NCBI GenBank assembly: GCA_028751875.1
Contig: CM054145.1
Span: forward strand, 12,686,567-12,750,566
Direction of reading: 5' to 3'
Length of the DNA: 64,000 nucleotides
Source of the DNA: Rapana venosa
Lineage: Eukaryota > Mollusca > Gastropoda > Neogastropoda > Muricidae
The translations under genes and the position numbers were made by a program. This document shows positions 36,501-42,500 of this stretch, piece by piece. Position 1 is the stretch's first letter. Each line of letters begins with the position of its first letter. The notes beneath the pieces were generated by a model. The model saw only the letters and a program-made list of their open reading frames with translations. It searched no databases and was not told where the DNA came from.

Positions 36501-39500
36501 GCCAAACTCCCAATTTCTGAGGATTTTGTTCTCCTTTAATGGAGGATACAGGCTGTTATGCAATCATGTCATGGATGAAGACAATCCACACACAACATGT
36601 TAATGACAGCCTTGGAACACTGCACACATCAATAAGTTAACTGACAAAGCTTCTGGCCAGGGCATCATTAGTTCAGATTCCATTTCATTACAAAACCTTT
36701 AGATGAGATCATAAACTGATGTCTCAAATGCAAAGGAAAAGTATGGCTGGTGGCATGGATGACATGCATTTTATTTTATTCATACGTTTATTCTTTTATT
36801 TTGAGGATAATGAAATAAACACTTATTTGCTTTTTTCACATCCAGTCCTCATGTGCATTCAGTTTTGTAAATTTTGTCATCCATTCCCACTGGCACAAAT
36901 AGCCTTCTTTTCTAAATGGCAGAACAGGTTTCAAAATGTGCGCCAGATGTTCTGCGAGCGTTCACACACAGGACCTCACTTTACAGTCTTACTCAAAGGA
37001 CTTTCGGGGTGTGTAGTCAGCACTGAAGTTAACTCCAGGGGCCAAATTCCCTTGAACGGGCCTCTTGGTGATGGCTTGAACCTGGACTCAAACCGGAACA
37101 GGAATATGCCAAGCGTGCAGCCTGCCCTACACTGCCAAAGGGCAGGTTGTGCATTATGAAATCATACATACTGAGACACTGTGCTCAAAGAAAGAAACAG
37201 CAGTATAGTGATGATACAACCATCTAGAAAGTGAGCCCTGGGTTTCAACAACATTTGAAGCTGTACTTATCTCCCATGCATTACATCCTGACTGATGGTC
37301 TGGGTAGAAGTTTTTTGCAAAAGAGGATAACCAAGATCTTGTGAGCACCAATTCATTTGGCAAACATAACTGACAGTATCAGGGCACTTGTCCTGTACTG
37401 GGGGCATTGCATTCCTCACAACAACTGCAGTGTATCAAAGTCAGTTCTGACTATAACACAGCTGAGCCAAGAAAAAAGCTGCTGTCATAAAATACTGAGA
37501 ATACACAGAAGCTGCAGCCTATACAGGCTGTTTCAGCCCGCTCTAAACAAGGACCCAACCATTAAAATACACCAACACTTCTTATCAGTTCTCCGTCATA
37601 TCTTCAAACCCATAATTATACAACACAGCAATAGTACACAATGTGGCAATAGAAATAAACAGAAAAGACAATTCTGCTTGATGAAACTCACTTTGTCATG
37701 AGAACTTCGAGTGGCTTTGGTTGCCCTTGTATCAAAGGGGGTCGTTTTCCTGGTCACAGACAAAACAAAAAGAACTCTCAAGAACCAAAACATTGCAACA
37801 TGCTGATGCATTTCTTGTAGCAAATGTAACAGATACACATGACACCAATGAAAGAATAGTCACAATTACCCAGCAACTGTCTCTGCTCAAACCAAACTAC
37901 ATCACAAGCTGGCTATGCAGAGACACACATTGTTTAACTTGACGTACTTTCAAGAAAGAAAGTAAACAGTCATATTTTTTTTAAGTTATCTTTTTGTGCA
38001 TCTAGACTACCAATTATGAAACTCAGAGAAGATATACAACATTTATTGGTACGAAACAAGCATAAAGTACTGCCCCCCCCCCCCCCCCCACCCCAAAAAA
38101 ACCAACAACAACCAAATAAACAAATCAAAAAACATCCAAACAACCATCCAACCAACCAAAACAGACACAAACAAAAAGCAAACATCAACAACTGCACACA
38201 CATAAACATTGTAAAGAAAGTTCCAAAATTATTACATACAACTACATATTCAATAAGAATATTCAGTAAGATCACACAAATCCAACCATATCACACAATT
38301 GTAAACAAGAATGTTTCAGACAGCAAGTTTTGTGATAATGTTTAGTCAAAGAGAATCTGGTGCTAATGATCCTCACATGCATGTATAAATTATGTAAATT
38401 TCACTACTCCTCCACTTTCCAAGTAAACTCTTGGTCAATAGCAAAGTATAATCAAGTATGCTCGCTCAATCAGTGGCAAGTGTGGAAATCAGAAACAGTA
38501 AAACAAAATCACAACATCAAAAACAAACAAATAATTTTTGTTTTTTTTAAAAGAAAAGGGGTAAAATTTCTAATGCTCTCAACCACTTCTTTCCATTCGC
38601 CCTGATAGTGAAAACTTTGTAAATTATCTGTAACTGTTGTTCAATGCTGTCTAATAAACACACTACAGAAACAAAAATGGTTTCACCATTATCCAATATA
38701 AATGCTAAACACACATATGCACCTACACTAAAACTGACTCAAATGAGGTCTATCATTAGCAATATGTAAAGCTGAATTACTGACACATTGTGTACAGCCC
38801 ACATGATAGAAACAGGATTCATAAGGGTTTCCTTGGGATCACTTCCACAGAATGATGCCCAGCTGAAACGTCACATTTTTCACTGTAGTAGAACCTGCAC
38901 ACACCACACAACACACAACCACATCATAATGATGATTTAGCTGATTATGTCACATTTTTCACTGTAGTTAGAACCTGCACACACACACACACACACACAT
39001 CATATGATGATTTAGCTGATTATGTCACATTTTTCACTGTAGTTAGAACCTGCACACCACACACACACACAACCACACATCATATGATGATTTAGCTGAT
39101 TATGTCACATTTTTTCACTGTAGTTAGAACCTGACACACACACACACACACACACACACACACACACACACACACACACACCACATCATAATGATGATTT
39201 AGCTGATTATGTCACATTTTTCACTGTAGTTAGAACCTGCACACACACACACACACACACAACACACACACACACACACACACACAACACACATCATAAT
39301 GATGATTTAGCTGATTATGTCACATTTTTCACTGTAGTTAGAACCTGCACACACACACACACACACACACACACACACACACACACACACACACAACCAC
39401 ATCATAATGATGATTTAGCTGATTATGTCACATTTTTCACTGTAGTTAGAACCTGCACACACAACCACACACACACACAACACACACCACACACACAACA

Positions 39501-42500
39501 CATCATAATGATGATTTAGCTGATTATGTCACATTTTTCACTGTAGTTATGCAACACACACACACCACACACACACAACCACATCATAATGATGATTTAG
39601 CTGATTATGTCACATTTTCACTGTAGTTGACGACACACAACACAACACACACACAACAAACACTCATAATGATGATTTAGCTGATTATGTCACATTTTTC
39701 ACTGTAGTTAGAACCTGCACACACACACACACACACACACACACAACCACATCATAATGATGATTTAGCTGATTATGTCACATTTTTCACTGTAGTTAGA
39801 ACCTGCACACACACACACACACACACACACACACACACACACATCATAATGATGATTTAGCTGATTATGTCACATTTTTCACTGTAGTTAGAACCTGCAC
39901 ACACACCACACACACACACACACAACACACACACACACACACACACACCACATCATAATGATGATTTAGCTGATTATGTCACATTTTTCACTGTAGTTAG
40001 AACCTGCACACACACACACACACACAACCACATCATAATGATGATTTAGCTGATTATGTCACATTTTTCACTGTAGTTAGAACCTGCACACACACACACA
40101 CACACACACACACACACACACACACACACACACACAACCACATCATAATGATGATTTAGCTGATTATGTCACATTTTTCACTGTAGTTAGAACCTGCACA
40201 CACACACAACCACATCATAATGATGATTTAGCTGATTATGTCACATTTTTCACTGTAGTTAGAACCTGCACACACACACACACACACACACACACACACA
40301 ACCACATATAATGATGATTTAGCTGATTATGTCACATTTCTCACTGTAGTTCGAACCTGCACACAACACACACACACACACACACAAACACCACATCATA
40401 ATGATGATATATCCATTATGTCACATTTTTCACTGTAGTTAGAACCTGCGCACACACACACACACACACACCACATCATAATGATGATTTAGCTGATTAT
40501 GTCACATTTCTCACTGTAGTTAGAACCTGCACACACACACACACACACAACCACATCATAATGATGATTTAGCTGATTATGTCACATTTCTCACTGTAGT
40601 TAGAGCCTGCATACACACACACACCACATCATAATGATGATTTAGCTGATTATGTCACATTTTTCACTGTAGTTAGAACCTGCACACACACACACACACA
40701 CACACACACCACATCATAATGATTATTTAGCTGATTCTGTCGCACTTCTCACTGTAGTTAGAACCTGCACACACACATACACACACACCACATCATAATG
40801 ATGATTTAGCTGATTATGTCACATTTCTCACTGTAGTTAGAGCCTGCATACACACACACACCACATCATAATGATGATTTAGCTGATTATGTCACATTTT
40901 TCACTGTAGTTAGAACCTGCACACACACACACATACACACACACCACCACCATAATGATGATTCAGCTGAGCACATCACATTTCACGACCACTCTGAACT
41001 TCCTTCTATATTTTCTGCATTCTTCTCTGACAAAGTCCGCAACATTCGCTCCAGTTTGGATCAGACTCCTTTCCAGCCTGCAACTTCTGATCCCCAATTC
41101 TCTGGCACTCCTCTCCTTTCCTTTCATCCCGCAAGCGAGAAAGAAATCGAGATAATTCTGAAAGGAAAGACTATAAAATCATGTGATCTTGACCCCATAC
41201 CTGCTTCTCTTTTTGCACAGTGCCTACCACAACTTATTCCCACTATTACGAAAATAGTAAACTTATCTCTTGTCTCTGGAAATGTTCCTTCAGCTCTAAA
41301 AACTGCTATAGTCACACCTCTACTCAAAAAGCATGACCTTGACCCCAACATTCTGAAGAACTATACACGTTTCCAACCTACCTTTTATCTCTAAAGTCCT
41401 TGAAAAAGTAGTTCTAAAACAGCTCAACAACCACCTTCTCTCCAACAGTCTCCTTCCTGCATTTCAGTCTGCCTATCGCGTCAACAACAGCACTAAAACT
41501 ACCTTTGCCCACACCTTAAACACACTTCTACTCGCTTCTGACTCAGGGAAAATCTCTCTTCTTACTCTACTCGACTTATCTGCAGCCTTTGACACTACTG
41601 ACCACTCTATTCTTCTCTCCTGTCTTCAAAAAAATTTGGTGTTACTGGTACAGCCCTTACCTGGTTTAGTTCATACCTTACTGACCGATTCCAGACAGCC
41701 ACAGTAAACAAGATTCAGTCAGTACCTGCAAGATTGGAATGTGGAGTTCCACAGGGATCTGTTCTGGGCCCTGTTCTTTTCACACTCTACACTGCTCCAC
41801 TGTCACATATAATTAACCGCCATCAGATCAACCATCATTTTTATGCAGATGACTCTCAGATTCTAAGCAGCGACACTCCTGAAAATCTGCCTTCTCTCTT
41901 TACAAATATGGCCCACTGCTTTCAAGATATCCAAAATTGGATGATACAGAACAAATTACAGCTAAATGCAGATAAAACAGGAAACCATGCTTGTAGGGAC
42001 CAAACACAAACTCTCTTCCATCACAACAGCTTCAATACAACTTGGCAATGCATCAGTCCCTTTATCCACTGCTGTGAAGTATCTAGGGGTTATTATTGAC
42101 AACACATTCTCTATGCCAAAATTCATCACCCAGACCTGCCAGTCCTGCTACTATCAATTACGGCGTATTAGTGCAATTCGAAAGTACCTGTCCACAGATG
42201 CAACATCCAAACTTGTTGCGTCTCTCATTCTTTCACGTCTGGACTATTGCAATTCTCTGTTTGCTGGTCTGCCAGCAACATCTATCCACTCCCTTCAACG
42301 TATACAAAACTCCGCAGCTCAACTAATCATCAGAAAGAAAAAATATTACCCCTCTCTTGCAATCTCTCCACTGGCTGCCTGTGCCACAGAGAGTAAACTA
42401 TAAGATCAGTACCCTCTGTTACAAATGTCTCCACAAAACAGCACCCGCCTACCTCTGTGAATGTCTTCACTTGTACACTCCTCCTCGTTCTCTCCGCTCT

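What the first reader, a model, noticed from the sequence alone, without database searches (positions are those of the whole stretch)
38895..40984. About 24 tandem decoy copies of the TAK1 exon 6 acceptor and exon start, directly upstream of exon 6
Each unit carries a (TG)n tract, a CAG acceptor and a decayed 5' half of exon 6 (frame [12 protein letters not shown], then stop). During transcription the spliceosome would meet some two dozen look-alike 3' splice sites before the real exon 6. Splicing to one would yield a truncated kinase ending in the C-lobe; skipping all of them is needed for active TAK1. Minisatellites made from a host exon's own splice junction are unusual. The array could modulate TAK1 output, act as a poison-exon bank, or be neutral. 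The unit sequence and position are seen; the function is inference.
Basis: partly seen in the sequence, partly recalled or inferred. Interest (0 to 1): 0.88.

Follow-up and report, generated by a model that had tools for sequence, protein, structure and literature searches.

The report
Exon-start copies repeated before kinase exon
In a mollusc-like TAK1 kinase gene, the splice junction and first coding bases of one exon have been copied about two dozen times just upstream of that exon, a rare kind of repeat called a mirage, probably a tolerated by-product of repeat growth rather than a proven switch.

Summary
On the minus strand, upstream of TAK1/MAP3K7 exon 6, lie 23 complete units plus a 24th split by a non-LTR retroelement. 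Each has a TG tract, usually an intact acceptor (21 of 23), the exon-6 start and a stop. Exon-side similarity beats all 2000 shuffles; the split unit is intermediate between exon 6 and the consensus. The units derive from exon 6.

New here: (1) nine older units before exon 5 probably copy exon 5's acceptor and start; (2) the distinct substitutions in the units' 26 exon-derived bases (5 of 5; 6 of 6 with the split unit) are synonymous in exon 6's frame, as if exon and array exchange sequence; (3) exon 6 as assembled lacks 20 nt against a close relative, in an indel-rich patch, probably assembly error.

Such arrays are known as 'mirages' in amphioxus, with splicing reported normal; human ABCA7 has a donor-side analogue. 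Best reading: a mollusc mirage, mostly silent because units lack strong donors. Decoy or poison regulation is untested; no RNA, population or genome-wide data were available.

The parts
38898..40984 (-). exon-6 'mirage' array: 23 complete units of (TG)n + CAG + 26-nt exon-6 start + decayed exon-6 continuation, plus the 3' half of a 24th unit
40985..42932 (+). non-LTR (L2/CR1-like, name recalled) retroelement inserted in the 24th unit, opposite strand to TAK1; flanked by the 5-bp direct repeat ATTTC (40980-40984 and 42933-42937); its reverse transcriptase is split over several frames
   Evidence: (RVT_1)
42933..42956 (-). 5' half of the 24th unit (acceptor AG lost: CAT); by eye a decayed trace of a further unit follows upstream to about 43010
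38786..38894 (-). authentic exon 6 as assembled: 109 nt; 20 nt deleted and 1 substituted against the close relative's protein; no GT at the position the frame needs (one lies a base earlier)
43164..43288 (-). TAK1 exon 5 (open frame, AG and GT borders)
43299..43604 (-). second array: nine 31-38-nt units in register with, and resembling, exon 5's acceptor and first ~20 exon bases (probable mirage)
37692..37749 (-). TAK1 exon 7 (open frame, AG and GT borders)
38786..39720 (.). indel-rich patch with no substitutions in its nine unit cores (19 indel nt in 531 core nt against 3 in 826 in the other 14 units), probably low-quality consensus

Best explanation
This is a 'mirage' minisatellite: a stretch holding the 3' end of intron 5 (a TG tract and the CAG acceptor) and the first ~50 bases of exon 6 was tandemly duplicated and then multiplied, helped by the TG repeat at each unit's edge (inferred). 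The copies lie in the intron and have decayed past the first 26 exonic bases. Those 26 bases, with the TG tract and acceptor, stay like the exon because exon and array keep exchanging them by unequal crossing-over or conversion (inferred from the synonymous-only pattern). At the RNA level the copies are mostly ignored: they have acceptors but no strong donor, whereas exon 6 should have one (exon definition; recalled principle). Rare use of a copy adds a stop codon and should be removed by nonsense-mediated decay (recalled principle). Shown: anatomy, origin from exon 6, stops, mostly weaker donors, coding-like variation. Inferred: TG-driven growth, exchange, silence in splicing. The confidence below is for the core (exon-derived, mostly silent mirage); the exchange step alone is nearer 0.5, and the second rival is this core without exchange, so the figures overlap.
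For: Unit-to-exon similarity beyond 2000 shuffles; no other copy in the window; split unit intermediate, [12 protein letters not shown], 18 of 22 against 16 of 22 matches to exon 6 in bases 27-50, 0 of 100000 shuffles each in fixed register. The 5 distinct substitutions in the 26-nt part are all synonymous; neutral placement gives this in 87 of 200000 draws, and for 6 of 6 (split unit added) in 9 of 200000. The 6 mismatches between unit consensus and exon 6 all lie past base 26 (P 0.007). Probable second array at exon 5. Donors under 9 of 10 of the gene's own. Amphioxus mirages reported not to interfere with splicing (PMC3087553, PMC3902484, passages).
Against: No RNA data. The synonymous test rests on five or six events found after looking, and some share one higher-order repeat. 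With free gaps the second half of the unit alone is not significantly like exon 6 (195 of 2000 shuffles as good; 328 of 5000). Short-read polishing of repeats could have made the nearest 15 units look more alike than they are (0 substitutions). Exon 6 itself is damaged in this assembly, so identity is measured on 25 of 26 bases. The donor model has only 10 sites; its weakest site (4.6 bits) scores below the best unit GTs, which also exceed 97.5% of the window's GTs.
Confidence: 0.72

Rival explanations
1. Regulatory decoy or poison-exon bank: unit acceptors compete with exon 6, diverting part of the transcripts into stop-containing, decayed forms, or promote in-frame skipping of exon 6 (129 nt if intact, inferred from P0001), and array length tunes TAK1 output. 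UG tracts bound by TDP-43-like proteins could set the balance.
For: 21 of 23 units carry an acceptor closely like the real one; 23 of 23 lead to a stop; the best unit GTs exceed 97.5% of the window's GTs; human ABCA7 intron-18 VNTR length correlates with skipping of exon 19 (PMC5954066 passages); missplicing of CFTR exon 9 needs TDP-43 on UG-rich sequence upstream of the acceptor (PMC12171016 abstract).
Against: Unit donors below 9 of 10 of the gene's own; using a unit acceptor with the exon 6 donor makes exons of 189-2131 nt as assembled; amphioxus mirages reported not to disturb splicing (PMC3087553, PMC3902484); no expression data here.
Confidence: 0.12
2. Ordinary neutral minisatellite with no further exchange with the exon: one founder copy of the exon 6 start, mutated once in its second half, then amplified; the synonymous pattern is chance.
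For: 15 of 23 units carry no substitution in the core; few independent substitutions; second-half changes shared by the units fit a single founder.
Against: Synonymous-only changes and exon-unit mismatches confined past base 26.
Confidence: 0.3
3. Assembly artefact: the array, or its copy number, is produced by mis-assembly of noisy long reads.
For: Indel-rich patch next to and inside exon 6.
Against: Units differ by shared substitutions, show a 3-unit higher-order pattern (237 bp), and one unit is split by a retroelement with a 5-bp direct repeat, a history that assembly is unlikely to invent; copy number may still be off.
Confidence: 0.05
4. Alternative exons: the units are real mutually exclusive or cassette exons, translated.
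For: Coding-like variation in the first nine codons.
Against: Stop after 12 residues in most units, weak donors, residue-changing and indel changes after base 26.
Confidence: 0.02

Closest known systems
'Mirage' minisatellites of amphioxus (Adh3, globins BflGb6 and BflGb9, troponin C, PGBD5; PMC3087553 and PMC3902484, passages read)
   Same: Tandem duplicates spanning an intron-exon boundary next to the real boundary; BflGb6 also duplicates the 3' end of an intron with the 5' part of an exon; many copies keep AG/GT; units at the cluster edge escape homogenisation.
   Different: Here a mollusc-like TAK1 gene, about 24 units with a TG microsatellite in each, a probable second array at the neighbouring exon, and coding-like variation in the copies. 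BflGb6 has 6 and 3 units of 150-160 bp in its two haplotypes.
Human ABCA7 intron 18 VNTR (PMC5954066, passages read)
   Same: Intronic VNTR that starts at, and repeats, a splice site of the adjacent exon.
   Different: Donor side, 25-bp units; length correlates with skipping of exon 19; effects were measured in people, here nothing was measured.
UG-rich sequence before CFTR exon 9, bound by TDP-43 (PMC12171016, abstract and section list only)
   Same: UG-rich stretch upstream of an acceptor.
   Different: Not a repeat of the splice junction; effect on splicing shown there.
Internal tandem repeats in human segmental duplications (PMC2812944, passages read)
   Same: Minisatellite growth, in some cases at the exon-intron boundary, with cryptic splice sites and new introns.
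   Different: Recent human paralogs; half of the repeats lie in coding sequence.

Membership tests
mirage minisatellite | tandem repeat whose unit spans an intron-exon boundary | tested here: met
   TG tract + CAG + exon 6 start in the units
mirage minisatellite | array lies next to the authentic boundary it copies | tested here: met
   last unit core ends at 38919, exon 6 starts at 38894
mirage minisatellite | many copies keep splice signals | tested here: met
   21 of 23 units keep AG
mirage minisatellite | normal splicing is not disturbed | not testable with these tools
   no RNA of this animal; a close relative's protein is joined correctly, its array status unknown
mirage minisatellite | length instability between alleles | not testable with these tools
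   one haplotype only
mirage minisatellite (exon-5 array) | unit copies the exon 5 boundary | tested here: inconclusive
   at the junction 5 of 9 units exceed all of 1000 shuffles, the other four are reached by 1, 3, 7 and 13 of 1000; exon side alone 1-2 of 1000 for 3 of 9 and 29-997 of 1000 for the rest; exon 5 is the best match of the type A consensus outside the array (7 edits, next 8), but not listed for type B
ABCA7-like splicing VNTR | array length changes inclusion of a neighbouring exon | not testable with these tools
   needs RNA and alleles
poison exon | usable acceptor and donor, included in some transcripts, triggers decay | tested here: inconclusive
   acceptors and stops present, donors below 9 of 10 of the gene's own; no transcripts
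dispersed satellite or transposon | copies elsewhere in the genome | tested here: inconclusive

The most novel reading that the evidence does not exclude
The first nine codons of TAK1 exon 6 are themselves the last unit of the array: exon and array swap acceptor and exon start by unequal exchange, so a coding exon is under concerted evolution with two dozen intronic copies and the copies store its past synonymous variants, while array length sets how often exon 6 is included.
Probability: 0.15. Interest if true: 0.72.

Novelty: new member of a known kind. Interest (0 to 1): 0.52.

Why it matters
Splice-junction minisatellites are described, in the papers I saw, from amphioxus and, donor-side, from human ABCA7. 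No mollusc case appeared among the rows listed by nine searches of the held library, of which only 34 and 48 named molluscs or gastropods, and several listed only part of their hits; that is weak evidence of absence. Two arrays at neighbouring exons of one gene suggest the process recurs in this genome. If copies exchange with the exon, this is a natural test of how a gene tolerates two dozen look-alike acceptors, how the right one is picked, and whether minisatellites can rewrite coding sequence.

Tried and rejected
Unrelated satellite: rejected on exon similarity and lack of other copies in the window. Boundary copies at other exons: a scan of both ends of 11 exons against the adjacent 3 kb, with provisional boundaries off by up to about 10 nt for some exons, ranked the acceptors of exon 6 (1 of 39 comparison windows as good) and exon 5 (2 of 39) best; exon 7's donor came next (3 of 39), the other 19 ends were reached by 12 or more windows; some comparison windows hold the arrays themselves. 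The 44/51-bp array at 567-3032, 20 nt from exon 11: no exon match, not counted as a mirage. Clustering of the four arrays with period 30 or more and 3 or more copies at exon edges: 4 of 4 within 25 nt, 0.0003 by random placement, but chosen afterwards. First fuzzy search listed only 16 sites, missing units that differ from the core; superseded. A heterogeneity figure of 0.0014 assumed 8 differences from an inferred intact exon; replaced by 0.007 from observed bases. Second half of the unit alone against exon 6 is not significant with free gaps (195 of 2000; 328 of 5000); it is in fixed register, with gap places chosen by me. Synonymous test at exon 5: the three changes between the type A consensus and exon 5 in NLLLI are silent, which is often expected for leucine codons, and single units carry changed residues. 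Conus and abalone intron-repeat papers: no boundary copies in the passages seen. A Drosophila intron-gain paper (PMC2809761) was seen as abstract and section list only.

Full report
GENE. The minus strand holds a TAK1/MAP3K7 gene. Ten exons were placed (e1 56453-56397, e2 51268-51089, e3 50650-50605, e4 48988-48850, e5 43288-43164, e7 37749-37692, e8 36149-36077, e9 35603-35534, e10 31671-31524, e11 547-488); all ten have a GT donor, the nine after e1 (which begins at the start codon) an AG acceptor, and all are open in frame. Less conserved exons between e9, e10 and e11 may be missed, and the C-terminal end lies outside the window. The joined product without exon 6 matches solved TAK1 chains best (E 1e-117). 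In the protein database (best 120 of 718 listed) the top hit is P0001, an unnamed 420-residue protein from a 1440-nt contig, followed by named gastropods (Arion, Biomphalaria) and bivalves. P0001 agrees with this gene at 179 of 182 residues in e1-e5 and 64 of 67 in e7-e9. So the animal is mollusc-like; its species is not known to me.

ARRAY. A 59-base core scanned over both strands with up to 20 edits gave 23 complete units between 40919 and 38919, the authentic exon 6 (12 edits), two halves at the retroelement edges (17 and 18 edits), and three chance matches of 20 edits elsewhere. TG tracts between units run 13-51 nt. Acceptors read TGCAG|GTTCT in most units and in exon 6 alike; 21 of 23 keep AG. 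Continuing from exon 5, 23 of 23 reach a stop, 18 of 23 as [12 protein letters not shown].

ORIGIN. Exon-side similarity scored 49 against at most 28 in 2000 shuffles. The unit split by the retroelement is the outermost nearly whole one; with its flanks joined it reads [12 protein letters not shown], between exon 6 of the relative (DVFSW) and the other units (DIIS*); it matches exon 6 at 18 of 22 compared bases past base 26, the consensus at 16 of 22. With free gaps the second half alone is not significant. The retroelement carries reverse-transcriptase matches (RVT_1) and sits between ATTTC repeats, so at least part of the array is older than that insertion. The 15 of 23 units nearest exon 6 have no core substitutions; the 8 farthest have 15 together: turnover is recent on the exon side, or polishing flattened it.

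CODING IMPRINT. In the 26 exon-derived bases the five distinct substitutions among units (GGT>GGC, TCT>TCG, GAA>GAG, AAA>AAG, TGT>TGC) are all synonymous; the split unit adds GAC>GAT, also silent. Random placement with the same kinds of change gave all-synonymous in 87 of 200000 draws for five and 9 of 200000 for six. The five changes after these bases (core positions 31, 36, 38, 41, 44) do not look confined to silent sites: T31G gives [12 protein letters not shown], and three lie together in one unit with an indel. Units end at a stop, so selection on their own peptide is unlikely; exchange with the functional exon explains it best. Five or six events, tested after they were seen, are a small basis.

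EXON 5 ARRAY. Nine units of 31-38 nt at 43604-43299 run in register into exon 5's acceptor. At the junction 5 of 9 beat all of 1000 shuffles and the other four are reached by 1, 3, 7 and 13 of 1000; on the exon side alone three are reached by 1-2 of 1000 and the rest by 29-997. Some units are near-identical to each other, so these are not nine independent tests. The type A consensus finds exon 5's junction as its best match outside the array (7 edits of 29; next 8), type B does not. Four of nine units still read NLLLI or NLLLV, like exon 5's NLLLIQ. I take it as a probable older mirage.

QUALITY OF EXON 6. Against P0001's protein the assembled exon 6 needs 20 deleted and 1 substituted nt and no insertion, while e1-e5 (546 nt) and e7-e9 (201 nt) need no indel. 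The adjoining 0.8 kb of array has 19 indel nt in 531 core nt and no substitutions, the rest 3 in 826 (P 6e-6). Deletion-dominated noise beside a repeat points to poor consensus, not decay, but raw reads are needed.

FUNCTION. Unit GTs score at most 6.6 bits on a model of the gene's 10 other donors, which score 4.6 and 7.4-12.1; they still exceed 97.5% of the window's 4954 GTs. Using a unit acceptor with exon 6's own donor would give exons of 189-2131 nt with a stop. Hence I expect the units to be mostly ignored, and rare errors to be decayed (recalled principles of exon definition and nonsense-mediated decay). A predicted lizard TAK1 isoform (P0015) lacks the exon-6 segment in frame, so skipping is a conceivable outcome; the human ABCA7 VNTR correlates with skipping of the next exon (PMC5954066, passages). 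Regulation remains a live rival.

LITERATURE. 'Mirages' are described for amphioxus Adh3, troponin C, globins and PGBD5, reported not to interfere with splicing (PMC3087553 passages; PMC3902484 passage). The original Adh3 paper was not among the papers listed and was not read. Nine searches showed no mollusc case among the rows listed. The finding is a new member of that kind with two added twists: a probable second array at the neighbouring exon, and a coding imprint.

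Noticed in passing
567-3032: About 54 copies of a 44/51-bp minisatellite end 20 nt before TAK1 exon 11's acceptor; its unit shows no exon match but contains splice-like strings (TTTAGTCTTCAG, TCA|GTAAGG, by eye).
   Followed up: partly
35949-36071: A CA-rich imperfect 39-bp array lies 6 nt from exon 8's donor, so the four arrays of period 30 or more and 3 or more copies in the window all touch exon edges.
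   Followed up: partly
38786-39720: Indel-rich patch covering exon 6 and nine units, without core substitutions: likely poor consensus.
   Followed up: yes
43288-43164: Exon 5 encodes LLLIQYGT, shared with P0001; the five other mollusc proteins fetched have LLLIMGGT, LLLILGGT or LLLVNGGT. The changed residues lie in the stretch that the array units resemble.
   Followed up: no
16789-18537: Open frame of 583 codons that looks like a non-LTR reverse transcriptase (recalled, not tested).
   Followed up: no
59350-61400: Second, decayed reverse-transcriptase-like element on the minus strand resembling the one inside the array (by eye).
   Followed up: no
P0015 (protein): A predicted lizard (Pogona) TAK1 isoform lacks the exon-6 segment in frame (EVFEGTRPPL).
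   Followed up: no
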